DNA from: Gammaproteobacteria bacterium
GTDB lineage: Bacteria; Pseudomonadota; Gammaproteobacteria; Pseudomonadales; Porticoccaceae
DNA: 64,000 nt
Assembly (NCBI GenBank): GCA_018069465.1
Contig: JAGPUW010000008.1
Span: 186,001-250,000, forward strand
Direction: 5' to 3'
Shown here: piece after piece, positions 1,029 to 41,707 of the stretch
How the letters are laid out: every line of letters begins with the position of its first letter
Position numbering within the stretch: the first letter of the stretch is position 1
Program-made: the position numbers and the translations under genes
Notes under the pieces: model-generated
What the model was told of the DNA's origin: nothing
The model's input: the letters and a program-made list of their open reading frames with translations, nothing else
Database searches by the model: none

Positions 1029-2192
1029 TCAATAAGAGCGCGGCAAACCCATGACATGTTCAGCAATATAATTGTGGATCATTTCATTGTTAATAGGCGC
1101 TGTTTTGGTCAGCCGTACTAAAGGGTATAAATCAAAAATACCATACTCCTTAGTAAAGCCATTGCCACCAAAGCACTGTAACGAAGCGTCCACCGCTTTA
1201 ATACCCGCCTCGGAGGCCGCCAGCTTGGCCATATTGGCCTCTGCGCCACAGGGCTTTCCCTGATCAAATAACCACGCGGCCTTGCGCGCCATTAGCGATG
1301 CCATTTCAACTTCTGTTTTGGCTATTGCCAGCGGGTGCTGCAGGGCCTGATAAGCGCCAATCGGGCCGTTAAAAACAACTCGATCATTAGCATAGGCGAC
1401 GGCTTTATCCATTGCAAAGCGGCCGATGCCGGTACAAATAGCACCGCCGAGTATGCGCTCGGGATTGAGGGAATCGAAAAGAATATTAAAGCCTTTACCC
1501 ACCTCGCCGAGGACGTTTTCCGGCCCCAGCTCAACATCATCAAAAAACACCTGATATTGCAATTCGGGCAGGGCGATACTCACGGGGATGGGTTGCATTT
1601 CCACACCCTTGGCCTTGGTGGGCACAATAAACAGGGTAAAGCCGTCGGTTTTACGTTTAGTTTCACTCAGGGGCGTAGTGCGAGCGACGACCAATGCGTA
1701 GTCGGACTCCGCGGCATCGGTAATAAAGGTTTTATTGCCGCTAAGTTTAAAGCACCCATTGGCGGTCGGCTTGGCGAGGGTGCCGATATTGATGGTGTTG
1801 GTGCCGGCATTGGCCTCGGTAATCGCAAAGCAAAAGCGAATATCACCCTTGCAGGCAGCGGGTAGATAATTGTTGCGCTGGGCATCGCTGCCGTGCTCGG
1901 ACAACACTGACATGGTCATGCAGGCACCGACCACCAGGCTTAAAAGCGGAATGCCCTCGTTGGCAATACCCTCCTGAAACAGCAGCATTTCCAGCATCCC
2001 CAAACCGGCACCGCCAAAGGCTTCGGGTACCATGGTGCCGAGAAAACCATCGTCGGCGACTTGGCTGTACATTTCCTCGGGGAAGCGATGAATCTCTGCA
2101 TTTTCCATCCAGTACTTACGGTCGTAAGTCTTACTGAGACTCTTGCCGTATTGGTGAATCATGCTTTGTTCTTCAGATATATTAAAATCCAT
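1029..2192 (-). CDS. Acyl-CoA dehydrogenase (paralogue of the neighbouring gene)
   Basis: A 387-residue, full-length acyl-CoA dehydrogenase. The ATG follows a strong GGGAGG ribosome site. The N-terminal helical domain (MDFNISEEQ), CFAITEANAGTNT, the beta-domain loop FITDAAESDYALVVART and the C-terminal FGGNGFTKEYG are visible. In the C-terminal active-site segment, where medium-chain enzymes have IYEGT before SEIQ, this protein reads APIN before NEMIHN. By eye the usual catalytic Glu is therefore absent there, and the base must come from elsewhere, as in some other subfamilies. Near-identical architecture to the gene at 1-974 indicates a tandem duplication. The role is probably beta-oxidation of a branched or cyclic acyl-CoA, which is inference. 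Confidence 0.93.
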   Translation of the reverse strand: MDFNISEEQSMIHQYGKSLSKTYDRKYWMENAEIHRFPEEMYSQVADDGFLGTMVPEAFGGAGLGMLEMLLFQEGIANEGIPLLSLVVGACMTMSVLSEHGSDAQRNNYLPAACKGDIRFCFAITEANAGTNTINIGTLAKPTANGCFKLSGNKTFITDAAESDYALVVARTTPLSETKRKTDGFTLFIVPTKAKGVEMQPIPVSIALPELQYQVFFDDVELGPENVLGEVGKGFNILFDSLNPERILGGAICTGIGRFAMDKAVAYANDRVVFNGPIGAYQALQHPLAIAKTEVEMASLMARKAAWLFDQGKPCGAEANMAKLAASEAGIKAVDASLQCFGGNGFTKEYGIFDLYPLVRLTKTAPINNEMIHNYIAEHVMGLPRSY

Positions 2193-4657: not shown

Positions 4658-5116
4658 TTATTTTTTCCGCATATTACCCAGGATCTGGTTGAGCAGATTA
4701 AGGCTGTTGACCCTCTCCTCTTCACTCATGTGCTTAACACTGTCTTGGTAGAATTTTTTCACCTTGGGCTCGACCTTTTTACAGACTTCCCGGCCATAGG
4801 GCGTGAGGCGAATTTGTCGCGAGCGCAAATCGTCGGGGTTGACCACACGTTCGATATAGCCAGACGCCTCCATCCGTCGCAACACGCCATTGAGGCTCTG
4901 GCGACTAACCATCAGGTATTCAACCAGACCGTTAACCGTCATACCCTTGTCAAAACCGGGTCGCGTGAGAGAATCGAGGATGGACCACTGCTGAGCACTC
5001 ATATCAAATTCGCTAAGTACTTCAGCCGCTCTTCTCAGGGAAAGGTTCATCGCCTGATATAAGCGAAAAAACAGCTTCAGGGGAATTTCCGAGCTTACGT
5101 CGTCAGTTTCTGCCAT
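4658..5116 (-). CDS. badR: MarR-family regulator, probable BadR of the cyclohexanecarboxylate operon
   Basis: A 152-residue MarR-type winged helix protein. The recognition region lies around VEYLMVSRQSLNGVLRRMEASGYIE split by the helix turn (residues about 65-95), and the wing contains NPDDLRSRQIRLT. The ATG follows TAAGGATAT. It is divergent from the aliB-badK-badI-badH genes with a 189-base shared intergenic region. In Rhodopseudomonas palustris the MarR protein BadR represses cyclohexanecarboxylate genes and is relieved by 2-ketocyclohexanecarboxyl-CoA. The same role here is inferred from neighbourhood; the MarR family itself is clear. Confidence 0.72.
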   Translation of the reverse strand: MAETDDVSSEIPLKLFFRLYQAMNLSLRRAAEVLSEFDMSAQQWSILDSLTRPGFDKGMTVNGLVEYLMVSRQSLNGVLRRMEASGYIERVVNPDDLRSRQIRLTPYGREVCKKVEPKVKKFYQDSVKHMSEEERVNSLNLLNQILGNMRKK

Positions 5117-5305
5117 ATATCCTTACCGAGTGGAGGTTGCTCATTGTGTTATTCTTATTGGCTGGCAATATACCTTATTCAAGCAAAAGTTAATACTGAT
5201 CGAAACTCGTTTATATGACGCAAATCATGCGCCGATATACGAAAAAGACACAACAATAAAAGCTCTCTCAACAGCGTAAGCCAAACAATACTCAAGGATC
5301 ATAAT

Positions 5306-6463
5306 ATGGATTTCGGGCTCACTGATTTTCAACAGTCATTAGTCGACAGCGCCCGGCGCTTTGCCAACGACAAACTCGCCCCAGCCTATAAAGCGGGCGA
5401 CAAAGCTTGTGCGTTTAGTCGACCCTTAATTTCCGAAATGGGCCAGCTCGGCTTTATTGCCCCCGAGGCACACGAACAATACGGCGGCAGCGGACTCGAC
5501 GCCCTGACTTCCGGGCTCATCACAGAAGCCATTGCCGAGGGTGATATGAATGTTGCCTATGTGCCTATTAATGCATCCCTCGTCGGCAATTGCATTCTTA
5601 GCCACGCCCGGCCAGAAATTATTGAAGAGTTTATGCCCCGTATATGCGCTGGTGAAAATATCGCCTGTATCGGCTTAACCGAGCCCCGTGGCGGTTCCGA
5701 TGCGGCCGGTGTTGTACTCAAGGCGACATTGAATAACAGCGAGGAAGGCAATTTTTACCTGCTTAACGGAGAAAAAACATCGATATCGATGGCCCAACAA
5801 GCCGATATCTGCCTGATTTTTGCCCGCACCGGTACCATTGAAGAAAAAGCCCACGGGGTTTCCGCCTTTCTTGTCGACCTCAACGCCCCCGGCATTACCC
5901 GCACCCGCTTTGAGGATATTGGAGAAAAGTCAGTGGGTCGGGGTTCACTGTTTTTTGACGATGTACGCATTGATGAGAAATACCGCATTGGCGGCGAGGG
6001 CAAAGGTTTTGTACAGGTAATGCAGGGCTTTGATTTCAGTCGTGCGCTTATCGGTCTGCAGTGCCTCGCCCTCGCCCGCAAATGTCTGGATGAAACCTGG
6101 GAATATATTCAACAGCGCAAAACCTTCGGTAAAGTCCTCGCCGTTAATCAGGGCGTTACCTTCCCACTGGCCGAGGCCGAAACCCAGCTCGAAGGCGCAC
6201 GATTGGTGTGCCTCAAAGCGCTGTGGCTAAAAGCCCAGGGTAAGGACCACACGAAAGAAGCCGCAATGGCGAAATGGTGGGCGCCCAAACTGGCTTTTGA
6301 TATTACTCAGCAGTGTTTGTTAACCCACGGCCACGGGGGCTACAGCGACGAGCTGCCCTTTGAACAGCGCTTGCGCGATGTGCTGGGCATGCAAATTGGC
6401 GACGGCACCGCGCAGATTATGAAAATGGTGATTGCCCGGAGCTATGTCGGAAAACCCGCTTAA
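5306..6463 (+). CDS. aliB: Acyl-CoA dehydrogenase, probable cyclohexanecarboxyl-CoA dehydrogenase
   Basis: A 385-residue acyl-CoA dehydrogenase with an AAGGAT ribosome site. Visible signatures are CIGLTEPRGGSDAAG (residues about 121-135), the RKTFGK motif near 271 and GHGGYSDELPFEQRLRD near 342-358. At the usual catalytic Glu position the motif reads IGDGTAQI, placing Asp366 as the candidate base. It is the first gene of a co-directional set with a crotonase, BadI and an SDR, so the likely reaction is cyclohexanecarboxyl-CoA to cyclohex-1-ene-1-carboxyl-CoA. The dehydrogenase family is certain; the cyclic substrate is inferred mainly from badI. Confidence 0.75.
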   Translation: MDFGLTDFQQSLVDSARRFANDKLAPAYKAGDKACAFSRPLISEMGQLGFIAPEAHEQYGGSGLDALTSGLITEAIAEGDMNVAYVPINASLVGNCILSHARPEIIEEFMPRICAGENIACIGLTEPRGGSDAAGVVLKATLNNSEEGNFYLLNGEKTSISMAQQADICLIFARTGTIEEKAHGVSAFLVDLNAPGITRTRFEDIGEKSVGRGSLFFDDVRIDEKYRIGGEGKGFVQVMQGFDFSRALIGLQCLALARKCLDETWEYIQQRKTFGKVLAVNQGVTFPLAEAETQLEGARLVCLKALWLKAQGKDHTKEAAMAKWWAPKLAFDITQQCLLTHGHGGYSDELPFEQRLRDVLGMQIGDGTAQIMKMVIARSYVGKPA

Positions 6464-6523
6464 TAGATACTAGCAAATACTTTAATAACAACTACTTATA
6501 CAGTAATTTAAAAGAGAATAGTT

Positions 6524-7300
6524 ATGTCGCCCGTTATTGAAATCAGCCAACAAGATGGCGTTGGTATCATCAAATTGAACCGCCCCGAGCAATTTAATTG
6601 CCTGTCGATGGCGCTACACGAAAGTCTATATGAGGCGATGGATCAATTCGAAGTCGACAGCAGTGTGCGCGCTGTACTGATCGCCGCCAACGGTAAAAAT
6701 TTCTGCACCGGGGCCGATCTTGAAGAGGTTAGTGGCTTTCGCGACAGCGATGAAGATATTCGCGCCTTCCTGGAAACCGGGCTCGATACCTTGCGCAAAC
6801 TTGAGACATCGCCCCTGCCCGTGGTGATTGCTCAGCAGGGACTGGCCTTGGCTGGAGGGCTGGAACTGGTCCTCGCAGGCGACGTTGTCTTTGCGGGTAA
6901 AAGCGCACAACTCGGCGATCAGCACGCCCATTTCGGCTTGATACCCGGCTGGGGTGGCAGCCAACGCCTGCCCCGCTTGATTGGCCGCCGTCGCGCCCTT
7001 GAACTGATGCTCAGTGCGCGCTGGCTAAACGCGCAAGAAGCTCTCGATTTCGGTCTGGTTAACTATGTGATTGAAGATGAAAAACTGTTCGACAGTGCCC
7101 TCGCCTACTGTCAGCAGTTGAGCCAACGCAGCTCAGCCGGACTGGCGCTGATGAAACAATTAACCGACCGGGGACTGGACATGCCCCTTGAGCAAGGCCT
7201 GGCACTGGAACTCGATCTGGCCACACCGGCGCTGCGCAGCGAGGCGGTGAGCGAAGGCCTGAGAGCTTTCGGCGAAAAACGCGCGCCCAAATTTAGTTAG
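6524..7300 (+). CDS. badK: Crotonase-family protein, candidate cyclohex-1-ene-1-carboxyl-CoA hydratase
   Basis: A 258-residue enoyl-CoA hydratase/isomerase-fold protein, 60 bases after aliB. The oxyanion-hole region NFCTGADL (residues 59-66) and ALAGGLEL (109-115) are clear, as is GLIPGWGGSQRLPR. The first catalytic glutamate is kept as E114, but the second (Glu164 of rat crotonase) aligns with H134 in LGDQHAHFG. In a cyclohexanecarboxylate pathway this slot is filled by BadK, which hydrates the ring double bond to 2-hydroxycyclohexanecarboxyl-CoA. The Glu-to-His change means a variant mechanism or a different crotonase activity is possible, so the badK label is positional. Confidence 0.6.
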   Translation: MSPVIEISQQDGVGIIKLNRPEQFNCLSMALHESLYEAMDQFEVDSSVRAVLIAANGKNFCTGADLEEVSGFRDSDEDIRAFLETGLDTLRKLETSPLPVVIAQQGLALAGGLELVLAGDVVFAGKSAQLGDQHAHFGLIPGWGGSQRLPRLIGRRRALELMLSARWLNAQEALDFGLVNYVIEDEKLFDSALAYCQQLSQRSSAGLALMKQLTDRGLDMPLEQGLALELDLATPALRSEAVSEGLRAFGEKRAPKFS

Positions 7301-7444
7301 GCTGCGCTAAAGCAAAAATGAATAAAACTCGTCTCGTAACTGCTCCATCGTTACAATAAACCCACGCTGATCAGGACTAGCATAGCTTCCTGGTGCAGCG
7401 TTTCCCTTTAATGCGCTGAGCGCCAAGCAGAGGTAAAAAGCAAC

Positions 7445-8227
7445 ATGGATTATCAGGATATTATTTACCAAGTTAAGGGCGCAACCGCCTATATCACCAT
7501 CAACCGCCCCGAGGTTTACAACGCCTTTCGCGGTATCACCTGCGATGAACTAATCCATGCTTTCCAGAAAGCGGGCTGGAATAACAGCATCGGTGTGATT
7601 GTGCTCGCCGGCACTGGCGACAAAGCCTTTTGTACCGGTGGCGACCAGTCCTCCCACGATGGCCAATACGATGGCCGTGGCACTATCGGCTTACCCGTTG
7701 AAGAGCTGCACACGGTTATTCGCGATGTCCCCAAGCCCGTTATTGCCAAAGTACAGGGTTATGCCATCGGTGGCGGCAACGTGCTGGCGACGATTTGTGA
7801 TTTGACCATTGCCGGTGAAGACGCACAATTTGGTCAGGTTGGCCCCAAAATGGGCTCCATTGACCCCGGTTTTGGTACTGCCCTGCTGGCACAAATTGTC
7901 GGCGACAAAAAAGCCAAAGAAATCTGGTATATGTGCCGCCGCTACACGGCAGCTGAGGCCCAGGAAATGGGTCTGGTCAACAAGGTGGTTCCCAACGACC
8001 AGCTCGATGCCGAGGTGGATGCCTGGTGTGCTGAGCTGGAACAACGCAGCCCCACGGCCATCTCTATTGGCAAGCGCTCCTTCAATGCCGCCACCGAAAA
8101 TATTCGCGGTATCGCCAGCCTTGGCCTTGAAGCGCTGCGTCTTTATTACGATTCAGAAGAGTCCCGCGAAGGGGTTAATGCACTGGCTGAAAAACGCAAA
8201 CCCGACTTTCGTAAGTACGTAAAATAA
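7445..8227 (+). CDS. badI: 2-ketocyclohexanecarboxyl-CoA hydrolase
   Basis: A 260-residue crotonase-superfamily protein of the MenB-like branch. It closely resembles BadI of Rhodopseudomonas palustris as I know it: NAFRGITCDELI, AFCTGGDQSSHDGQYDGRG, VEELHTVIRDVPKPVIAKV, GYAIGGGNVLATICDLTI and GQVGPKMGSIDPGFG, ending in EKRKPDFRKYVK. D140 sits where MenB has its conserved Asp. The enzyme hydrolytically opens the six-membered ring of 2-ketocyclohexanecarboxyl-CoA to pimeloyl-CoA. An AGAGG ribosome site precedes the ATG. A 144-base gap before it could hold a separate promoter. This gene anchors the pathway assignment. Confidence 0.92.
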   Translation: MDYQDIIYQVKGATAYITINRPEVYNAFRGITCDELIHAFQKAGWNNSIGVIVLAGTGDKAFCTGGDQSSHDGQYDGRGTIGLPVEELHTVIRDVPKPVIAKVQGYAIGGGNVLATICDLTIAGEDAQFGQVGPKMGSIDPGFGTALLAQIVGDKKAKEIWYMCRRYTAAEAQEMGLVNKVVPNDQLDAEVDAWCAELEQRSPTAISIGKRSFNAATENIRGIASLGLEALRLYYDSEESREGVNALAEKRKPDFRKYVK

Positions 8228-8272
8228 ACATTAAGCTTGTAGTTTAATCAACTAATTTATAAGGATTTTATT

Positions 8273-9070
8273 ATGGATCTCGACTTAAAAGGCCGGTCCG
8301 TTATCGTCACCGGCGCCGCCTCTAATATTGGCCGCGCCATCGCCCTCAAATTTGCCGAAGAAGGCGCCAAAGTCACTATTGCCGATCTCGACGTTGAGAG
8401 TGGCGAAAAAGTAGCCGCCCTGGCGAGAGAAGCCGGCGCCGCCGATGCCCAGGTCATCAAAACGGATATCACCGACCTGGCCAGTGTCGAAAACCTCTTC
8501 GATACCGTTGCCTCCACCTTCGGCACAGTTGAAGCACTGGTCAACAATGTCGGCTGGGACGACCTGATGTTTTTCACCCAAACCACACCCGAGCTGTGGC
8601 AGAAGCTGATCGCCATTAACTACGTCGGCCTGTTGAACTGCACCAAAGTCGCATTGGGCCACATGACGCCAAATGGCGGTGGATCGATGGTATCGATCAG
8701 CTCCGACGCCAGCCGTCAGGGCGAGCCCCGCGAAGCGGTTTACGGCGGTTTAAAAGCCGCCACCAATAGCTTTATGAAAACCATCGCCAAGGAAAACGGC
8801 CGCTACAACATTCGCTGCAACTGCGTCTGTCCCGGTGTTACCGTGCCCGAAACCACTGATGAAACCAGTGAAAACAGCATGTGGAAAGATAAGGATGCGA
8901 TGTTTACCGAAGAACAATTCGTCGCCATTGCCAAGACCCTGCCACTAAAACGTATCGGCAAGCCTCAGGATGTGGCCAATGCCGTGGTGTTTTTATCCTC
9001 GCAGCATGTGGCGGGCTATATTACCGGTCAGGTACTCAGTGCCAGCGGTGGTTACAGCATGATTGGCTAA
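8273..9070 (+). CDS. badH: SDR dehydrogenase, probable 2-hydroxycyclohexanecarboxyl-CoA dehydrogenase
   Basis: A 265-residue short-chain dehydrogenase. The NAD(P) site is VTGAASNIGRAIA (residues 12-25), NNVG lies near 91-94, and the catalytic set is S143, Y157 and K161 in YGGLK. The C-terminal half carries CVCPGVTVPET and the usual LKRIGKPQDVANAVVFL. It follows badI by 45 bases with an AAGGAT ribosome site, and the pathway needs exactly one alcohol dehydrogenase between BadK and BadI, converting the 2-hydroxy to the 2-keto CoA ester. The SDR family is certain; the substrate is inferred from context. Confidence 0.8.
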   Translation: MDLDLKGRSVIVTGAASNIGRAIALKFAEEGAKVTIADLDVESGEKVAALAREAGAADAQVIKTDITDLASVENLFDTVASTFGTVEALVNNVGWDDLMFFTQTTPELWQKLIAINYVGLLNCTKVALGHMTPNGGGSMVSISSDASRQGEPREAVYGGLKAATNSFMKTIAKENGRYNIRCNCVCPGVTVPETTDETSENSMWKDKDAMFTEEQFVAIAKTLPLKRIGKPQDVANAVVFLSSQHVAGYITGQVLSASGGYSMIG

Positions 9071-9176: not shown

Positions 9177-10355
9177 TTAAACGCTAGCGAGTTGATGTTT
9201 TGATTTGCGCCAGTAAAGCAGTGCCACTATCAGCAGCGCCAATATTGGCAAACTAATCAGCAACAATGCTTGCCAGCCAAGCTTGCTCAAGATCAAGCCC
9301 GCCAGCAGCGCCCCGACAGCTTGAATCCCAAAAATCGTAAAGTCATTCAAGGCCTGAACTTTAAAGCGCTCCGTTTCACGGTAGCCCTCGGGCAATAGCG
9401 TCGTACCGCCAACAAACAAAAAATTCCAGCCAATGCCGAGCAATACAAGCGACACCCAGTAATTGACAAAGTCATAGCGAGAGAAGATCACCAGCACCAT
9501 CACCAGTAAGGCGACAATGCCGAGGCTGATTAAGCCCTGCACACCGATGCGGCGAATAATCCACGGCACGAAGAAAGACGGTAGAAACATCGCCACAATA
9601 TGACTTTGAATCACCCATTTGGTATCCACCAGGCTATGACCGTTTTCAAAATGCATGTGCAGGGGTGTTGAGGTCATCACCAGACTCATAATCGCGAAGC
9701 CAGCACACCCGGAAATCACCGCAACCAGAATCACCGGCTGGGCGAGTATTTCTAGCAGAGGCCGCCCCTTGGCATCATTTTGTTGCTGATCTCTTTCGGG
9801 CTCGTTAAAGAAAAACAGCACCAAAAAAACAAGGATCGCCACCACCATCAGCAAGCCAAAAGAACCCTGGTAGGGCGTTGTCGTTAACAGCTCACCGCGC
9901 ACCGCAAGCTCAGGCCCTAGAAAGGCCGCACCAATACCGCCAATCAAGACCCGAGATGCCGCCTGGGGAACGTCCTCCACGGCAACACTTTCCATTGCCG
10001 CAAAACGGTATTGCTGACCGGCAGCCAGACCAACACCCAGCACCACAACCGCCAGCAGATAGGTCGTAAAACTCTGTAATTGCAGGGCATACATCGCCAA
10101 CACGCAACCAAGGCTGGCAATAAGCGCACAAAAAAGAAAGACTCGCTTGCGCTGAAAGCGCCGCATAGAAAGAATGACGGGGAGTGTGGCGATGGCAGAG
10201 CCGAGCACGAAAGCAGCGACGGGCATGGTTGCCAAACCGGGGTCAGGCGCCAGTGTTTTACCGATAATACTGCCGACAAAAATCACAAAGGAGGCAATCG
10301 ACATCGTTAGCGCCTGGCAAAGCATAAACAACCAGACATTATTGGCTACTTTCAT
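9177..10355 (-). CDS. MFS transporter
   Basis: A 392-residue, very hydrophobic protein with roughly 12 predicted membrane segments in two halves separated by a polar loop around residues 180-200 (NEPERDQQQNDAKGRP). The short basic cytoplasmic loop RRFQRKRVF between segments 2 and 3 and RRIGVQG in the second half fit the major facilitator superfamily. The ATG follows AAAGG at a good distance. It converges on the cyclohexanecarboxylate operon through a shared terminator, so a role in uptake of a related acid is possible, but nothing in the sequence shows the substrate. Confidence 0.88.
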   Translation of the reverse strand: MKVANNVWLFMLCQALTMSIASFVIFVGSIIGKTLAPDPGLATMPVAAFVLGSAIATLPVILSMRRFQRKRVFLFCALIASLGCVLAMYALQLQSFTTYLLAVVVLGVGLAAGQQYRFAAMESVAVEDVPQAASRVLIGGIGAAFLGPELAVRGELLTTTPYQGSFGLLMVVAILVFLVLFFFNEPERDQQQNDAKGRPLLEILAQPVILVAVISGCAGFAIMSLVMTSTPLHMHFENGHSLVDTKWVIQSHIVAMFLPSFFVPWIIRRIGVQGLISLGIVALLVMVLVIFSRYDFVNYWVSLVLLGIGWNFLFVGGTTLLPEGYRETERFKVQALNDFTIFGIQAVGALLAGLILSKLGWQALLLISLPILALLIVALLYWRKSKHQLASV

Positions 10356-35066: not shown

Positions 35067-35993
35067 TTAATCATTAACGTGGTGTTTTTGCTGATCCTGC
35101 AAGCATTCATTGATAGGGGTTAGCAGTAGATCGGTAATATCCATCGCATTAGACGAGTGCACAATGGTATTGGTGGTCGCCAACTCTTCGAGGCCTGCGG
35201 CAAGTAATTGCGCATCGACACCACCCACAAAGATGCCATGCACAGCGGCACATTTTATACGCTCAACACCCTGCGTTTGCAGTGCCGCGATGCATTTTAA
35301 AATAGTTTGGCCACTGGCGATAACGTCATCGATAACCACTGCCGTGTGCTGGTGATAAGGGCCTAAATCCGGCAGGGTGACACGCACATCGCGATCACCA
35401 AAGCGCTGCTTGGCGCCAATCACAAAAGGCTGGCCACTGTGAGCGGCAATCTGCGATACCCATTGTTCGCTCTCCGCATCGGGTCCCACCAGCAGTAGAT
35501 TTGCCTGCCCTTTCAGCCAGCCTGCCAACAACGGTGCCCCGGCGACCACACGGCTAGGCGTGGCATAAATCTCATCCAGGCTATGGTAGCGGTGCAGGTG
35601 GGGGTCGACCGTCACCAGCCAGTCTATTTGCGCGGATAACTGCTGGGCAAAAATTCGCGAGGTGATGGCCTCACCCTCGGCAAAGCGCTTGTCCTGGCGC
35701 ATATAACTTAAATAGGGCGCGACCAAACCCACCGAAGTGGCTCCCAATTCGCGCAAGGTCTGCAGTAAAAACACCAGCGGTAAATATTTGCGATTGGGAT
35801 GGGAGAGCTCAGCCAGCACAATGCAGTGCCTGCCCTGCACCGGCGTATCGATGCGCAGGTAGGACTCGCCATCGGGAAACAAACGCTGACTACTTTGACC
35901 CTGCTCAAAGCCAAGCTTGTCAGCCAAAGAGGCCGCCAGGGGATGGGGGTCAAGAGTAAAAATAAGGCCACCCTGGTTCGCCACACTTTTCAT
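35067..35993 (-). CDS. Ribose-phosphate pyrophosphokinase-like protein
   Basis: A 308-residue PRPP-synthetase homologue with the duplicated phosphoribosyltransferase fold. Visible motifs are LFPDGESYLRID, the catalytic loop basic residues in GAKQRFGDRDV, DPHLHRYHSL for metal/ATP binding, and the PRPP loop AVVIDDVIASGQTI. It would convert ribose-5-phosphate and ATP to PRPP. It is divergent from the housekeeping Prs type and is probably the accessory paralogue seen in pseudomonads. Its ATG overlaps the cusA stop by four bases, an unexpected coupling to metal efflux. Confidence 0.82.
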   Translation of the reverse strand: MKSVANQGGLIFTLDPHPLAASLADKLGFEQGQSSQRLFPDGESYLRIDTPVQGRHCIVLAELSHPNRKYLPLVFLLQTLRELGATSVGLVAPYLSYMRQDKRFAEGEAITSRIFAQQLSAQIDWLVTVDPHLHRYHSLDEIYATPSRVVAGAPLLAGWLKGQANLLLVGPDAESEQWVSQIAAHSGQPFVIGAKQRFGDRDVRVTLPDLGPYHQHTAVVIDDVIASGQTILKCIAALQTQGVERIKCAAVHGIFVGGVDAQLLAAGLEELATTNTIVHSSNAMDITDLLLTPINECLQDQQKHHVND

Positions 35994-38900
35994 TGCTCAT
36001 CTCCAATCATTGAATGCCGTGTAGTTGCCGTGCCAAGTTGAGCTTTGCGCCACAGATAATAAACGGCAGGTAACACCAATAAAACCAGCAACAGAGCACT
36101 GAGCATACCGCCAACCATGGGGGCGGCGATGCGACTCATCACTTCGGAGCCGGTGCCCGAACCCAGTAAAATGGGCAGCAGTCCGCCGACAATTGCAGCG
36201 ACTGTCATCATCACCGGCCGTACCCGCAGACCGGCACCGCGCAGCACTGCGCTGCGTAGTTTATCTGCGTCGAGGTCAATACTCTGGCTTTTACATTCGG
36301 CAACAGTCTGCAGCCAGGCCTGATTGAGATAGACCAGCATAATCACACCGATCTCTACCGCCACACCGGCCAGAGCAATAAAACCGACACCCACCGCGAC
36401 TGAGAAATTGTAACCGGCGAGGTACATTAACCACAGGCCACCAGCGGCGGCCACGGGCAAGGTGCCCATAATAATGAGTACTTCGGCGCTTCTGCGAAAG
36501 TTCAGATACAGCAGCAAGACGATGATCATCAAGGTTAATGGCACCACGTAGGCCAGTTTTTCTTTAGCCCGCAACATGTACTCGTACTGCCCCGACCAGG
36601 TCAGGGAGTAGCCCGCCGGCAAATCGATTTGTTCATTGACCGCCTGCTGTGCCCGCTTCACATAAGTGCCAATATCAACATTTTTAATATCGATAAAAGA
36701 CCAGCCATTCACTCGGGCGTTTTCACTTTTAATACCCGGCGGCCCGTCTTCAATATAAACCCGCGCCACATCAGCGAGGGCAATGCGCTGCCCCTGCGTG
36801 GTGACGATGGGCAGTAGCGCCAGTTGCTCGACAGAATCCCGATAGGCCTGGGGATAGCGAATATTTACCGGATAGCGCTCCAGGCCCTCGACAGTTTGGG
36901 TGACGTTGACACCGCCAATAGCGGTGGCGATCACCTGCTGTACATCGGCAATCGTCAAGCCGTATCGCGCCGCCCGTTCACGATCAATATCCACTTTAAT
37001 GTAGCGCCCACCGGCGACACGCTCTGAATACACTGACGCCGTACCTGGCACATCTTTAAGAATTGTTTCGAGCTGTAAACCAATGGCCTGAATTTCTTTT
37101 AATTGCGGCCCGGCGATTTTAATACCCACCGGCGTTTTAATTCCGGTGGCGAGCATATCGATGCGGGTTTTAATGGGCATTACCCAGGCATTGGTGACAC
37201 CGGGGAATTGCAGGCGCGCATCCAGCTCCTGTCTAATTTTCTCGGGCGTCATCCCTTCGCGCCATTGGTCGCGCTCTTTAAACTGAATAAAGGTCTCTAT
37301 CATATTCAGTGGGGCTGGGTCAGTGGCACTCTCGGCGCGGCCCATTTTTCCAAACACCGTTTTCACTTCGGGCACCGTGCGAATAAGTTTATCTGTTTGT
37401 TGCAGTAGCTCCCTCGCCTTGCCAATAGAAATACCCGGATAAGTGGTGGGCATGTACATTAAATCGCCTTCATCGAGAGAGGGAATAAACTCGCTGCCAA
37501 TTTGACTGGCCGGCCACAAGCCCAGCAGGGTCAATAAAAACGCTGCACTAATGGTTTTTTTGGGGTGGCGTAAGACCTTGCCCAAAGCCGGCAAATAGAG
37601 CTGGCGCAATAAACGGTTGAGGGGGTTTTTATCCTCGGCCCTAATATTACCGCGCACAAAATAGCCCATTAACACCGGCACCAAAGTAATCGCCAGCACC
37701 GCCGATGCCGCCATGGCATAGGTTTTGGTGTAGGCCAAGGGGGCAAACATTCGCCCTTCCTGAGCCTCCAGTGTAAACACCGGCAGGAAGCTGACCGTAA
37801 TAATCAGCAAACTAAAAAATAGCGCCGGCCCGACTTCGGTGGCGGCTTTGGCGACGACCTGCCAGCGATTTTTATCGGTGAGCACCTGCCCCTCCATGTG
37901 CTTGTGCATGTTTTCTATCATCACAATGGCGCCATCTATCATCGCGCCAATGGCAATAGCGATGCCCCCCAGAGACATGATATTGGCATTTAGACCCTGT
38001 AGATGCATGAGAATAAAGGCACTTAAAATACCCACCGGCAAACTGATAATGGCCACTAAAGAGGAGCGAATATGGAATAAAAAAACCATGCACACCAGGG
38101 CAACCACGGCAAATTCTTCAAGTAGTTTTTGCCAGAGATTCGCCACTGCCCGCTCGATAAGGCCCGAGCGATCGTAGACAGTGACCAGTTCGACGCCTTC
38201 GGGCAGGCCGCGCTTTAGCTCTTCCAGTTTGGCTTTGACCTTTTTAATCGTCTGCTGGGCATTATCGCCATAGCGCATAATGACAATACCACCGACGGTT
38301 TCACCCTCGCCATTGAGCTCGGCAATGCCCCGGCGCATTTGCGGCCCGAGGTTAATATCGGCAATATCACGCAGTAACAAGGGTGTACCTTTCACGTTCA
38401 TGCCCAGCGGAATGCTCTCAATATCGCCACGGTTTTGTAAATAACCACTAACGCTGACCATGTACTCCGCCTCACCCATCTCGACCACCGAGGCACCAAT
38501 TTCCTGATTGCTGCGCTGTACCGATTTTTGAACATGGCTGAGGGGAATACCAAAGGCGCGGAGTTTTTCCGGGTCAACCTTGATCTGATATTGCTTGACC
38601 ATACCGCCCACCGCAGCGACCTCAGAAACACCGGGCACCGTTTGTAACTCATATTGTAAAAACCAGTCCTGTATGCTGCGCAACTGGCTAATATCGTGTT
38701 TGCCGCTTTTATCGATAATGGCGTAAATATAGACCCAGCCCACTCCCGTGGCATCGGGGCCGAGTTGGGGCTTTGCCGTTGGTGGCAGGCTTGGAGCCAC
38801 CTGACTCAGATATTCAAGCACCCGGCTGCGCGCCCAGTACAAATCGGTAGCGTCGTCAAAAATCACATAAATATAGGAGTCACCGAAAAAGGAGTAACCG

Positions 38901-39148
38901 CGCACCGTTTTCGCGCCGGGCACCGACAGCATGGCTGTGGTGAGTGGATAGGTCACCTGATCTTCCACCACCTGGGGTGTCTGACCGGGATAGGAGGTTT
39001 TAATAATAACTTGTACATCGGAAAGGTCGGGGATGGCATCAATCGGTGTGTTTTTCAGCGAAAACAAACCAGCACCGACTAATATCAGCGCACCCAGTAC
39101 GACAAAGAAGCGATTGTTAATCGACCAATGAATAATTTTTTCTATCAT
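35990..39148 (-). CDS. cusA: Heavy-metal RND efflux pump, CusA type
   Basis: A 1052-residue HME-RND inner-membrane pump with about 12 transmembrane helices and two large periplasmic loops. The copper/silver methionine relay of CusA is recognisable: DEGDLMYMPT, EGMTPEKI and RIDMLATGI correspond to M573, M623 and M672 of the Escherichia coli protein. The proton-relay segment GGIAIAIGAMIDGAIVMIEN is intact. It exports Cu(I)/Ag(I) using the proton gradient with CusB and CusC. It overlaps cusB by four bases upstream and the PRPP-like gene by four downstream. Confidence 0.94.
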   Translation of the reverse strand: MIEKIIHWSINNRFFVVLGALILVGAGLFSLKNTPIDAIPDLSDVQVIIKTSYPGQTPQVVEDQVTYPLTTAMLSVPGAKTVRGYSFFGDSYIYVIFDDATDLYWARSRVLEYLSQVAPSLPPTAKPQLGPDATGVGWVYIYAIIDKSGKHDISQLRSIQDWFLQYELQTVPGVSEVAAVGGMVKQYQIKVDPEKLRAFGIPLSHVQKSVQRSNQEIGASVVEMGEAEYMVSVSGYLQNRGDIESIPLGMNVKGTPLLLRDIADINLGPQMRRGIAELNGEGETVGGIVIMRYGDNAQQTIKKVKAKLEELKRGLPEGVELVTVYDRSGLIERAVANLWQKLLEEFAVVALVCMVFLFHIRSSLVAIISLPVGILSAFILMHLQGLNANIMSLGGIAIAIGAMIDGAIVMIENMHKHMEGQVLTDKNRWQVVAKAATEVGPALFFSLLIITVSFLPVFTLEAQEGRMFAPLAYTKTYAMAASAVLAITLVPVLMGYFVRGNIRAEDKNPLNRLLRQLYLPALGKVLRHPKKTISAAFLLTLLGLWPASQIGSEFIPSLDEGDLMYMPTTYPGISIGKARELLQQTDKLIRTVPEVKTVFGKMGRAESATDPAPLNMIETFIQFKERDQWREGMTPEKIRQELDARLQFPGVTNAWVMPIKTRIDMLATGIKTPVGIKIAGPQLKEIQAIGLQLETILKDVPGTASVYSERVAGGRYIKVDIDRERAARYGLTIADVQQVIATAIGGVNVTQTVEGLERYPVNIRYPQAYRDSVEQLALLPIVTTQGQRIALADVARVYIEDGPPGIKSENARVNGWSFIDIKNVDIGTYVKRAQQAVNEQIDLPAGYSLTWSGQYEYMLRAKEKLAYVVPLTLMIIVLLLYLNFRRSAEVLIIMGTLPVAAAGGLWLMYLAGYNFSVAVGVGFIALAGVAVEIGVIMLVYLNQAWLQTVAECKSQSIDLDADKLRSAVLRGAGLRVRPVMMTVAAIVGGLLPILLGSGTGSEVMSRIAAPMVGGMLSALLLVLLVLPAVYYLWRKAQLGTATTRHSMIGDEQ

Positions 39149-40365
39149 TCGTCTCGCCCGCCACTCACTGCCATGCGCTGAAAATCGGAATCGATACTGG
39201 ATTCAGAGTCCAGTAAAAAATGGGCCGAGCTGACCACCCTGTCTCCCGCCTTAAGACCGTCAAGAATTTCAGCCTCGCTAGTACCAATGTGCCCCAGTGT
39301 CACCGCCACGGATTTAAAACGACCATCGCCCAGCGCCAATACCACCCTGTTTTGGCTGCCGGTACGGATAACGGCTTCGCGGGGTACTTGCAGGGTCGGC
39401 TGCGCGCCACCGCTGTGAATAATCACCTGGGCAAACATATTGGGTTTCAGCAGGGCATCCGTATTGGCAAAGCGCAAACGCACCCGCACGGTGCGAGTAA
39501 GGTTATCGAGAATGGGATAAATATAATCAACCTGCCCCCGCCACTGCCGACCCGGCAAATAATCCAGCGACATACTGACCTGGTCACCCTCGGCCAGCAC
39601 CCCGGCCTGTCGTTCAAATACCTGTGCCGTCACCCAAACTTCATCCAGGCCACCGACAGACATTAAGGCAGTACCGGGTTTTACAAACATACCTTCACGC
39701 ACACCCAAATTGGCAATAACACCATCTTGAGGCGAAGGCACGATGATGGCCTTTGTTGGCTTGCGGGATTTCCTCAAGGCATTAATTTGTGTTTGCGCTA
39801 CCTGTAAGGTCAGTAAGCGCTCCTCGGCTGAGCCGATCAAACGCCGATTACCGCGCTGCAGGGCGAGTACAAATTCCTCCTGAGCGGCCACTAGCTTGGG
39901 CGAATACAGGGCATATAATGGCTGGCCAGCCTGTACCGACTCCCCTTCTGATTTCACAAAGAGCTGCTCTACCCAGCCCTCCACGCGGGGGTGAATATGA
40001 ATCAAGCGGTCTTCATCAAAACCCACGTAGCCAACGGTGTTAATCACTATATCTAAAGGCTTAAACGCAACTACTGCCGTGCGCACACCAAGATTATTTT
40101 CAACCTGCGGCGTTATTGTCACCACCCCGGCACCTTTAATTTTACGGGCTGCCTGTGCTTCATAAACGGGCACTAGCGGCATACCCATTGGCGACAGGCC
40201 CGGCTCATCGCGTCGGTAGTTGGCATCCATCGGCGCTTGCCAATAGAGGGCTTCATTGGACGCTACTGTCACTTGGCTGCGATCGACAGATTGCCCATTA
40301 AAATAGGCTGTTGTCGCAATAACTCCGAGCAATAAAGCCAGTACAAAAATGCCAGAATTTTTCAT
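39145..40365 (-). CDS. cusB: RND efflux periplasmic adaptor, CusB type
   Basis: A 406-residue membrane-fusion protein. An N-terminal anchor helix (6-23) is followed by a heavy-metal-binding-like stretch YWQAPMDANYRRDEPGLSPM with GMPLVPVYE, then the lipoyl/hairpin region (VEGWVEQLFVKSEGESVQAG) and beta-barrel (VWVTAQVFERQAGVLAEGD). It bridges CusA and CusC and passes metal to the pump; methionines in the N-terminal region fit a Cu(I)/Ag(I) adaptor. One base separates it from cusC, and it overlaps cusA. Confidence 0.93.
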   Translation of the reverse strand: MKNSGIFVLALLLGVIATTAYFNGQSVDRSQVTVASNEALYWQAPMDANYRRDEPGLSPMGMPLVPVYEAQAARKIKGAGVVTITPQVENNLGVRTAVVAFKPLDIVINTVGYVGFDEDRLIHIHPRVEGWVEQLFVKSEGESVQAGQPLYALYSPKLVAAQEEFVLALQRGNRRLIGSAEERLLTLQVAQTQINALRKSRKPTKAIIVPSPQDGVIANLGVREGMFVKPGTALMSVGGLDEVWVTAQVFERQAGVLAEGDQVSMSLDYLPGRQWRGQVDYIYPILDNLTRTVRVRLRFANTDALLKPNMFAQVIIHSGGAQPTLQVPREAVIRTGSQNRVVLALGDGRFKSVAVTLGHIGTSEAEILDGLKAGDRVVSSAHFLLDSESSIDSDFQRMAVSGGRDE

Positions 40366-40366
40366 T

Positions 40367-41707
40367 TCATTTTTTCCTCAAAGCGTCGTTTATATGAACG
40401 TCATTCACATTAGCGATTTTTACATCAGCGCCGACCATAAAATAGTGCATTTTGGCCAATATTTTTTGCCGTTTTACACTTAACTGCAAAGCCATAATTT
40501 TAGTATTGAGCTCGGCAATACGGGCACGCATCACCTCGGCGAAGTCACCACCGTCGGTGGTGTAAGCCGCTAGCGTTGCATCGGCCTGATCGTGCATTTG
40601 CGGCAGTAAGTATTGTTGATAAAGCTGTTCCTGCTCGTCCACGCGCAACAATTCTGCCCCCGCCTGCTCGTAAGCTGAGCGTAATTCTCGCAGTAGTAAA
40701 TCCCGCTCAGTCTGGGCAGCGGCACGACGATGACTTGCCGCCAACACACGCTGATCCTGTCTGTTGGCCGTAAACAGCGGTAAATCGACGGTAATACTCA
40801 TGGACACAAAATCGGCCCGCTCATTGCCGCTCGGCGCCTCATCACGATAGGCATAAGCGGCATTGATAGCCCATTCGGGCTTGTATTGCTGGCGGGCCAG
40901 CTCCAGTCTGGTGGCGACAGATTCGATGTTGCGATCAAGGGCCCGCACCCGAGGGTGCTTCACAATGCCAGCCATTGTCTGCCGCTTATTTTCAAGCGTC
41001 ATGGGGGCCAGGCCATTTTTTTGAAGATTGCTTTGAAGATTGTCGCGCAAGACTCTATTAACCAGGGCCTCTGACAGCCATTCACCCAAGGCCTGTTGTG
41101 CGGCGTCGTGATCTTGCCAAAGCAGACTCAGCCGGGCCTTAAGTCGGCTCAACTCAAGCTCGGCACGAATCACATCTTGCTGGCGGGTTGAACCGGAGGT
41201 CGCCGTGTAATTGGCGTGGACAATATCAATCAATTGTTCGAATAAATGCCGATTATTTTCGATTAACGCCACGCTTTGCTGGGCAAGAAAAGCGTCGAAC
41301 CACAGCAAGCTCACTGTTAACGCAACGCGGGCTTTTCTGTCATCGCGCAAAAAGGGATAAGCCGCGCTTTGCTCACGTTTTATTCGGCGCTGTAATTTCA
41401 GCGTATCACCACGGGGAAACTTTTGAGCAAGACCCAGCTTAAACTGGCTCATAGGCTCCTGATCAAAGTCCAGCGTATCTGTCGCCAAATTCAGTAAGCC
41501 AAGGCTTAAGCGCGGGTCTGGCAGCTCTCCGTCGGCAATGCTTTCGGCCAGTAAGGCCCGCTCATTAAGCTCATTACCCTTTAACCAGGGGTCATTATTA
41601 TTGGCGTAGCTAATCGCCTCCCCCAGCCCCAGTGGCGCTGGCCCTGCCCAGACTGTATCAATAAAACCCGCTAACATTAGCGTCAAGCCAATGATTACAA
41701 TTCTCAT
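40367..41707 (-). CDS. cusC: TolC-family outer-membrane efflux protein, CusC-like
   Basis: A 446-residue outer-membrane channel protein with a signal peptide (IIGLTLMLAGFIDTVWA, cleavage near residue 21). It has the two repeated helical hairpins of OEP proteins, including a late GERADFVSMSITVDLPLFTA strand and RELRSAYEQAGAELLR helix. There is no lipobox, unlike Escherichia coli CusC. It heads the cusCBA run. Its start codon lies only 13 bases from a MITE-like element, so its original promoter region has been displaced or replaced. The exact metal is inferred from cusA. Confidence 0.88.
   Translation of the reverse strand: MRIVIIGLTLMLAGFIDTVWAGPAPLGLGEAISYANNNDPWLKGNELNERALLAESIADGELPDPRLSLGLLNLATDTLDFDQEPMSQFKLGLAQKFPRGDTLKLQRRIKREQSAAYPFLRDDRKARVALTVSLLWFDAFLAQQSVALIENNRHLFEQLIDIVHANYTATSGSTRQQDVIRAELELSRLKARLSLLWQDHDAAQQALGEWLSEALVNRVLRDNLQSNLQKNGLAPMTLENKRQTMAGIVKHPRVRALDRNIESVATRLELARQQYKPEWAINAAYAYRDEAPSGNERADFVSMSITVDLPLFTANRQDQRVLAASHRRAAAQTERDLLLRELRSAYEQAGAELLRVDEQEQLYQQYLLPQMHDQADATLAAYTTDGGDFAEVMRARIAELNTKIMALQLSVKRQKILAKMHYFMVGADVKIANVNDVHINDALRKK

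What the first reader, a model, noticed from the sequence alone, without database searches (positions are those of the whole stretch)
4658..9070. Compact cyclohexanecarboxylate-to-pimeloyl-CoA module in a gammaproteobacterium
Seen: a MarR gene divergent from acyl-CoA dehydrogenase, crotonase, BadI and SDR genes, with a strong BadI match. Known: in Rhodopseudomonas palustris the same activities (AliB, BadK, BadH, BadI, controlled by BadR) convert cyclohexanecarboxyl-CoA to pimeloyl-CoA. Inference: this organism degrades alicyclic (naphthenic) acids, probably aerobically. The CoA ligase AliA is not in the window.
Basis: partly seen in the sequence, partly recalled or inferred. Interest (0 to 1): 0.6.

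Follow-up and report, generated by a model that had tools for sequence, protein, structure and literature searches.

The report
Variant ring-opening operon for alicyclic acids
A marine gammaproteobacterium carries a compact gene set that very probably opens cyclohexane-type rings and turns them into a seven-carbon chain; the pathway is known, but two of its middle enzymes are unusual versions.

Summary
In detail: a MarR gene (4658-5116, -) is divergent from acyl-CoA dehydrogenase, crotonase, BadI and SDR genes (5306-9070, +). AliB (552 bits) and BadI (456) are by far best matched by their namesake models, each just below its curated cut-off. BadI keeps Ser138/Asp140/Tyr235 and nests among BadI of other bad-ali clusters. 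The MarR is this genome's BadR (162 bits to a profile of 22 cluster MarRs; next 31). AliA is on contig C2 (680 bits) beside a second AliB. In 58 genomes (own included) AliA and BadI occur together in 14, BadI alone in 1, neither in 43. COX1 genes, CYP153-like P450s and no BcrC hit favour aerobic alicyclic-acid degradation.

'Same activities' needs qualifying. The SDR lies in a clade separate from BadH, found in a few other BadI clusters. The crotonase has a conserved His where hydratases have their first catalytic Glu. The known BadR operator is in 27 of 40 intergenic regions of other clusters but 1 of 13 here. So this is a variant of the known pathway, already reported in gammaproteobacteria (PMC9795900); the exact substrate is unproven.

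The parts
4658..5116 (-). badR: MarR-type repressor, divergent from the operon
   Evidence: ORF; profile of 22 MarRs from other bad-ali clusters gives 161.8 bits here, the only other match in the genome 31.2
5117..5305 (.). Divergent promoter/operator region; no canonical BadR site CAAN4TTG; candidate inverted repeat ATGACGCAAATCAT at 5215-5228 (weak)
5306..6463 (+). aliB: cyclohexanecarboxyl-CoA dehydrogenase-type acyl-CoA dehydrogenase
   Evidence: TIGR03207 552 bits, next model 251; Asp in the IGDGT motif as in other AliB proteins extracted
6524..7300 (+). badK-like crotonase, probable hydratase of the cyclohexene-1-carboxyl-CoA product; His in place of the first catalytic Glu
   Evidence: same-strand neighbour directly downstream of AliB in six loci outside the family and on a Nitratireductor plasmid
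7445..8227 (+). badI: 2-ketocyclohexanecarboxyl-CoA hydrolase (ring opening)
   Evidence: TIGR03210 456 bits; S138/D140/Y235 invariant in alignment A1; nested among BadI of other clusters
8273..9070 (+). SDR in the BadH position: probable 2-hydroxycyclohexanecarboxyl-CoA dehydrogenase of a clade separate from BadH
   Evidence: TIGR03206 216 bits vs cut-off 431; tree; orthologs in BadI clusters L109, L137, L138, L155, L160

Best explanation
A BadR-controlled operon for aerobic breakdown of a cyclohexanecarboxylate-type (naphthenic) acid. AliA, encoded elsewhere, makes the CoA thioester. AliB dehydrogenates it at C1-C2. The crotonase adds water across that double bond, using one acidic residue plus a His. 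The SDR oxidises the C2 hydroxyl to a ketone. BadI hydrolyses the 2-keto ring to pimeloyl-CoA or an alkyl-pimeloyl-CoA, which enters beta-oxidation. Shown by sequence: family identity of AliB, BadI and BadR, linkage, conservation, and AliA co-occurrence. Inferred: the reactions of the crotonase and SDR, substrate, and inducer. Relative to the R. palustris/Aromatoleum pathway, the hydratase and alcohol-dehydrogenase positions are filled by non-orthologous or atypical enzymes and the operator has diverged.
For: Family scores. Window BadI in a supported clade nested among BadI of other clusters. BadR profile 161.8 vs 31.2 bits. AliA candidate 680 bits, next AMP-ligase 281. AliA (>=600 bits) and BadI (>=350 bits; thresholds set after seeing the scores) over the 58 genomes, all also: both 14, BadI only 1, AliA only 0, neither 43 (Fisher p 1.5e-12; relatives are not independent, and at most 20 candidates per genome were scored). 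The SDR clade occurs in the BadI cluster of 5 of the 75 named loci outside the family. In those five genomes no BadH-model hit exceeds 216.3 bits, against 328 in the BadH-type genome G102. AliB is directly followed by this crotonase type in L110, L112, L118, L120, L121, L149 and a Nitratireductor plasmid. Two COX1, no BcrC. Two CYP153-like P450s.
Against: None of AliB, BadI or the SDR passes its curated NCBIfam cut-off, and the crotonase passes none of those shown, though proteins in other clusters can fail too: BadI of G079 464.8, BadH of G079 368.6 and of Marinobacter 350.5. A second BadH-like SDR (C24:161348-162079, 270 bits, 42-48% to BadHs) could do the dehydrogenation instead. The crotonase is missing from the block in G017 and G027. 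No pimC equivalog: best 312.7 vs cut-off 624 (pimD not searched). No operator motif was seen upstream of the C2 aliA (by eye) and no site with up to one mismatch lies on C2. Substrate untested.
Confidence: 0.7

Rival explanations
1. The operon acts mainly on a substituted ring (alkyl-naphthenic acid or monoterpene-derived cyclohexane acid) rather than on cyclohexanecarboxylate itself; the unusual crotonase and SDR reflect that substrate.
For: SDR orthologs occur in Polaromonas JS666, Noviherbaspirillum and Hydrogenophaga in clusters with ABC-transporter and TetR-like genes (JS666 annotated, also CaiB and a P450; the other two read by eye from ORF starts), with no MarR hit and no AliA of the BadI-cluster type in the Noviherbaspirillum and Hydrogenophaga stretches held. 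A badKHI cluster without aliAB/badR was suggested for monoterpenes in Aromatoleum (Weiten et al., as cited in PMC9795900; that paper itself not seen). An array of six acyl-CoA dehydrogenases lies just upstream, and relatives of these accompany the same SDR or crotonase types in JS666, Cycloclasticus and Nitratireductor.
Against: AliB, BadI and BadR are of the types of the known clusters and co-occur with AliA; I identified no terpene-specific gene in the loci examined, but did not search the genome for one.
Confidence: 0.2
2. The linked SDR is not the functional BadH; the orphan SDR on C24 is, and the linked SDR does a side step.
For: The orphan scores higher on TIGR03206 (270.1 vs 215.3 bits) and reaches 48% to BadH proteins. 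In G010 its counterpart lies near thiolase-, SDR- and acyl-CoA-dehydrogenase-like genes, and two AMP-ligase-like genes lie 3.5-10 kb away in the own genome (by eye).
Against: Hits of the orphan's score class (229-279 bits) were not reported in G003, G004, G006 and G034, which all have BadI and the linked SDR; but only 37 of 56-65 candidates per genome were scored there, so this absence is not firm. In the own genome it sits beside a radA-like gene with no BadI, AliB or crotonase recognised nearby. The linked SDR is found in BadI clusters of distant lineages.
Confidence: 0.15
3. A generic beta-oxidation operon, with BadI a MenB-like enzyme of another role.
For: No curated cut-off is passed by AliB, BadI or the SDR; MenB is the nearest family with solved structures.
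Against: The BadI model beats the best MenB model by 127 bits; nesting among BadI of other clusters; BadR and AliA association.
Confidence: 0.05

Closest known systems
bad-ali cyclohexanecarboxylate pathway of Rhodopseudomonas palustris and Aromatoleum sp. CIB (PMC9795900)
   Same: AliB, BadI and a MarR-type BadR; one gene for each of dehydrogenation, hydration, oxidation and ring hydrolysis; regulator divergent from catabolic genes
   Different: SDR from a clade separate from BadH; crotonase without the first catalytic Glu; CAAN4TTG operator missing; aliA on another contig with a second aliB; gene order aliB-ECH-badI-SDR
Marinobacter salarius plasmid pHL2708Z5 cluster (H16/L167)
   Same: Gammaproteobacterial BadI (67% identical), annotated aliB and MarR gene
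   Different: AMP-ligase linked, a BadH-type SDR (350.5 bits) and a crotonase with the usual Pro-Glu motif
Polaromonas sp. JS666 plasmid 2 cluster (H31/L169)
   Same: SDR 69% identical to the window SDR; acyl-CoA dehydrogenase 63% identical to the upstream ACAD
   Different: No BadI annotated in the 24.8 kb seen; TetR, CaiB/BaiF, ABC transporter, MaoC and P450 genes instead

Membership tests
AliB (TIGR03207) | Score over curated cut-off 575.35 | tested here: not met
   552.2 bits, 23 short; next model 251; Marinobacter AliB 601.8 passes
AliB (TIGR03207) | IGDGT motif (Asp near the C-terminus) shared by cluster AliBs | tested here: met
   Asp in 74 of 74 distinct rows extracted with the G079 AliB query; with the window AliB query 79 of 81, 2 rows without the pattern; both own-genome AliBs have it
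BadI (TIGR03210) | Score over curated cut-off 467.6 | tested here: not met
   455.9 bits; 5 of 97 genomes pass; G079, with BadR, AliB, BadH and AliA linked, also fails at 464.8
BadI (TIGR03210) | Ser/Asp/Tyr residues equivalent to the MenB active site (recalled as catalytic) | tested here: met
   S138, D140, Y235 invariant in 10 of 10 rows; Ser and Asp in 91 of 91 distinct BadI, the simple Tyr pattern matched 62 of 91
BadI (TIGR03210) | Groups with BadI of other bad-ali clusters | tested here: met
   Tree of 95 rows, quick method, SH-aLRT support only
BadH (TIGR03206) | Score over curated cut-off 431.2 | tested here: not met
   215.8 bits; but 0 of 58 genomes passes
BadH (TIGR03206) | Falls in the clade of cluster BadH proteins | tested here: not met
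   Two separate groups, both 100/99 support; 20 SDR rows and 21 BadH rows; some outgroup branches long
BadK-type enoyl-CoA hydratase | Two catalytic Glu (rat ECH Glu144 and Glu164; names recalled) | tested here: not met
   His at the first position in 25 of 25 rows (19 distinct sequences), Glu or Asp at the second; alignment to 5zai; R. palustris BadK itself not in hand
BadR | Outstanding match of the genome to a profile of cluster MarRs | tested here: met
   161.8 vs 31.2 bits, two matches at E<=1 among 23 candidates
BadR | CAAN4TTG operator in the divergent promoter | tested here: not met
   0 in 5117-5305; 1 of 13 family intergenics vs 27 of 40 of other clusters
bad-ali pathway | AliA cyclohexanecarboxylate-CoA ligase in the genome | tested here: inconclusive
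   680 bits, cut-off 792 not reached (by 0 of 58 genomes), next ligase 281
bad-ali pathway | Growth on and induction by cyclohexanecarboxylate | not testable with these tools
   Experiment needed

The most novel reading that the evidence does not exclude
A second, stereochemically or substrate-distinct version of alicyclic ring opening: a His/acid crotonase hydrates the ring alkene differently (for instance to the other 2-hydroxy stereoisomer, or on alkyl-substituted rings) and a dedicated non-BadH SDR oxidises it, both feeding canonical BadI. Against strict coupling: Rhodobiaceae/Parvibaculum loci L118, L120 and L121 combine the His-type crotonase with BadH; G017 and G027 have the SDR without the crotonase in the block; L109, L155 and L160 have the SDR without such a crotonase in the stretch held.
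Probability: 0.2. Interest if true: 0.5.

Novelty: new variant of a known kind. Interest (0 to 1): 0.33.

Why it matters
Naphthenic acids are toxic components of petroleum wastes, and their degraders are usually recognised by matches to aliA/aliB/badH/badI. Here the AliA, AliB, BadI and BadH models all fall below their curated cut-offs and BadH is replaced, so routine annotation could miss or mislabel such organisms. If the crotonase and SDR work as proposed, they show that the two middle steps can be exchanged around a fixed AliB-BadI pair, and they give an easy test of hydratase chemistry with one catalytic acid replaced by His.

Tried and rejected
Considered and rejected: (1) BadH for the SDR, by the tree and score. 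(2) AliA absent from the genome: it is on C2. (3) Anaerobic benzoyl-CoA route: no BcrC hit; only that one subunit family was searched. (4) MenB for the BadI gene, by scores. (5) Shared BadR regulon with the C2 aliA pair: no common motif seen upstream of aliA by eye, no near-site on C2. (6) The inverted repeat ATGACGCAAATCAT as a firm operator: one exact site in the genome, 20 sites with up to 1 mismatch against 8 for the reversed control. In the 13 family regions it is exact or within 2 mismatches in 6 of 7 genus members (in G004 at a different place) and 3-5 mismatches off in the rest, so it stays weak. (7) Strict coupling of His-crotonase and SDR: contradicted by L118/L120/L121.

Led nowhere: paper searches on Porticoccaceae with methylcyclohexane, the 50_400_T64 record, JS666 with cyclohexanecarboxylate, Weiten/monoterpene, and badH+badI+Cellvibrionales. 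One search found no pimC equivalog. The AliB tree was badly rooted by a distant outgroup and held some genes twice with different starts; it serves only to show that the window and C2 AliBs are two groups. Crude ORF calls in GC-rich loci failed and were replaced by tblastn. No structure was predicted; conclusions on residues rest on alignments.

Changed on checking: the absence of the orphan SDR from four genomes rests on a capped scoring, so rival 2 went from 0.12 to 0.15 and the main reading from 0.72 to 0.70.
Full report
What is there. The window is G000:C29:186001-250000 of a 3.6-Mb draft genome in 49 contigs, listed as 97.6% complete. The five ORFs of the finding are real and at the stated places. 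Relatives with named records are Cellvibrionales bacterium NORP45 (BadI 98% identical), Gammaproteobacteria bacterium 50_400_T64 (97%), two uncultured gammaproteobacterial MAGs (96% and 81%) and Cellvibrionales bacterium UBA5860 (84%). The family name Porticoccaceae is my recollection and comes from no call on this genome.

Conservation. MltF-TadA-MarR|AliB-ECH-BadI-SDR is kept in 7 of 7 genomes of the genus, except that no TadA hit was found in the G001 stretch. In a second genus it is kept in G010, G021, G030 and G037; in G042 the contig ends inside AliB. In a third genus, G017 and G027 have MarR, AliB, BadI and SDR but no crotonase hit between AliB and BadI, and the short G034 contig has crotonase, BadI and SDR. 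G040 and G046 are contig ends and were not examined further.

Identities. AliB: TIGR03207 552.2 bits (cut-off 575.4), next model 251. BadI: TIGR03210 455.9 (cut-off 467.6), next 328. The SDR: TIGR03206 215.8 (cut-off 431.2). The crotonase: generic enoyl-CoA hydratase models only, none of the 25 shown over its cut-off. The cut-offs are strict: BadI of G079, which has BadR, AliB, BadH and AliA linked, scores 464.8, and its BadH 368.6. Positions S138, D140 and Y235 of BadI are invariant in the 10-row alignment; that these are the catalytic residues is recalled from MenB and BadI work.

Regulator. A profile of 22 MarRs from other bad-ali clusters gives 161.8 bits for the window MarR; the only other match in the genome has 31.2. 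The 22 are those of 23 loci I named that passed a length filter, out of 47 MarR hits outside the family. The likely operator differs. CAAN4TTG occurs in 27 of 40 distinct divergent intergenic regions of other clusters (about 1.8 expected at 50% G+C) but in 1 of 13 of this family (0.5 expected), and not in 5117-5305. Regions within each set are related, so these are not independent counts. Candidate repeats are weak.

Missing ligase. The best AliA match is G000:C2:81109-82713, 680 bits, the next ligase 281. It is followed by a second AliB-like gene (489 bits on TIGR03207; about 52% identical to the window AliB). This aliA-aliB pair is kept in 11 of 11 family loci with this AliA type; the other AliA types of G034, G006 and G003, and that of G081, show no such AliB. 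Over the 58 genomes (own included; all also), with BadI at 350 bits or more and AliA at 600 or more: both 14, BadI only 1 (G027), AliA only 0, neither 43. G008 has a weaker ligase match, 413 bits. Fisher p is 1.5e-12. The thresholds were set after seeing the scores, relatives are not independent, and at most 20 ligase candidates per genome were scored.

The SDR. A tree of 52 SDRs puts 20 window-type SDRs in one group and 21 BadHs (from 22 sampled at random among 56 hits) in another, both with 100/99 support; several outgroup branches are long. Window-type SDRs also occur in the BadI clusters of L109 (gammaproteobacterium) and L138 (Pseudomonadales), after AliB, and directly before BadI in L137 (Panacagrimonas), L155 (Noviherbaspirillum) and L160 (Hydrogenophaga). 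That is 5 of the 75 loci outside the family among the 80 best that one search returned. The L138 copy is split over two reading frames in that record. In these five genomes no BadH-model hit exceeds 216.3 bits, against 328 in the BadH-type genome G102; the split L138 gene itself was not listed. The Cycloclasticus genome G103, whose locus L112 has AliB-ECH-BadI without an SDR, carries a window-type SDR (63%) on another contig. In the BadI tree of 95 rows the SDR-type rows need two changes of label, in two places among BadH-type rows. So the partner appears to have been exchanged around a canonical BadI more than once. A competing candidate exists: an orphan SDR at C24:161348-162079 scores 270 bits and is 48% identical to the nearest BadH. 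In the own genome it sits by a radA-like gene, with two AMP-ligase-like genes 3.5-10 kb away; in G010 its counterpart has beta-oxidation-like genes nearby. Hits of its score class were not reported in G003, G004, G006 and G034, but only 37 of 56-65 candidates were scored there.

The crotonase. Where hydratases have the first catalytic Glu, the window protein has His, in 25 of 25 rows (19 distinct sequences). One row is the window itself and five (L086-L090) are re-fetched copies of genomes already counted. The second acidic position is Glu or Asp. Other crotonases have Pro-Glu there: the one divergent from the ligase in the Marinobacter cluster, the one beside BadI in Cupriavidus basilensis, and nine proteins in seven further loci, five of them 682-686 aa multifunctional types. 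In four more proteins my pattern found no motif. The window type is nevertheless tied to AliB: it directly follows AliB in L110, L112, L118, L120, L121 and L149, and overlaps the end of an AliB-like gene on a Nitratireductor plasmid. In L138 the SDR lies between them. I therefore read it as the functional BadK with altered catalysis. That single-acid crotonases can hydrate (feruloyl-CoA hydratase/lyase) is recalled, not checked.

Setting. The genome has two COX1 genes, no BcrC hit, 29 crotonase matches and three P450s. Two of these P450s match 7ant, labelled only cytochrome P450, best, and CYP153A7 next (558 and 595 bits). Each is followed by a gene that looks like a FAD-dependent reductase (by eye). 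This suits oxidation of alkylcyclohexanes to alicyclic acids and aerobic degradation; it is circumstantial. Passages of PMC8166890 report Porticoccaceae in oil-polluted samples and a Porticoccaceae MAG with cddA.

Known or new. PMC9795900 was seen as abstract, passages, and sections 21-22 in full. It shows that the bad-ali pathway works with and without oxygen in Aromatoleum, is widespread including Pseudomonas and Marinobacter, and often lacks a linked badK. PMC4547698 and PMC4591350 (passages) assign such genes by homology in Cupriavidus and Rhodococcus. None of my ten paper searches listed a paper on this SDR or crotonase variant, but they were not specific to it and most subscription journals are outside the library, so absence from print is not shown. 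Verdict: new variant of a known kind, modest interest.

Noticed in passing
window 1029-2192 (-) and upstream; L036:3900-11193: Six tandem acyl-CoA dehydrogenase genes of 387-388 aa; the other five are 68-74% identical to the window copy. Two copies show in the fetched stretch of each of the six other genus members. Relatives at 60-64% accompany the same SDR or crotonase types in Cycloclasticus, Polaromonas JS666 and Nitratireductor.
   Followed up: partly
G000:C2:79783-82722 (L001): aliA followed by a second AliB-like gene (489 bits on TIGR03207), conserved as a pair across the family; why the genome has two AliB types is unexplained.
   Followed up: partly
G000:C24:161348-162079 (L173:13343-14089): Orphan SDR closer to BadH than the linked SDR, next to radA-like and replication-like genes.
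   Followed up: partly
L182:5936-8569 and L183:5564-8181: Two CYP153-like P450 genes, each followed by a gene that looks like a FAD-dependent reductase.
   Followed up: partly
L169 (Polaromonas JS666 plasmid 2): Cluster with the window-type SDR, window-type ACAD, ABC transporter, CaiB, MaoC, TetR and P450, 2Fe-2S and FAD-oxidoreductase genes; substrate unknown.
   Followed up: partly
L178 (Cycloclasticus genome G103, contig C93): Window-type SDR beside alpha/beta-hydrolase, MaoC-like, HpcH/HpaI-type lyase and window-type ACAD genes.
   Followed up: partly
window 9177-10355 (-): MFS transporter convergent with the operon and kept near it in the genus and in genus g5; might be an acid transporter or unrelated.
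   Followed up: no
window 35990-41707 (-): Three adjacent genes that look like a heavy-metal RND efflux set (by eye from the ORF list).
   Followed up: no
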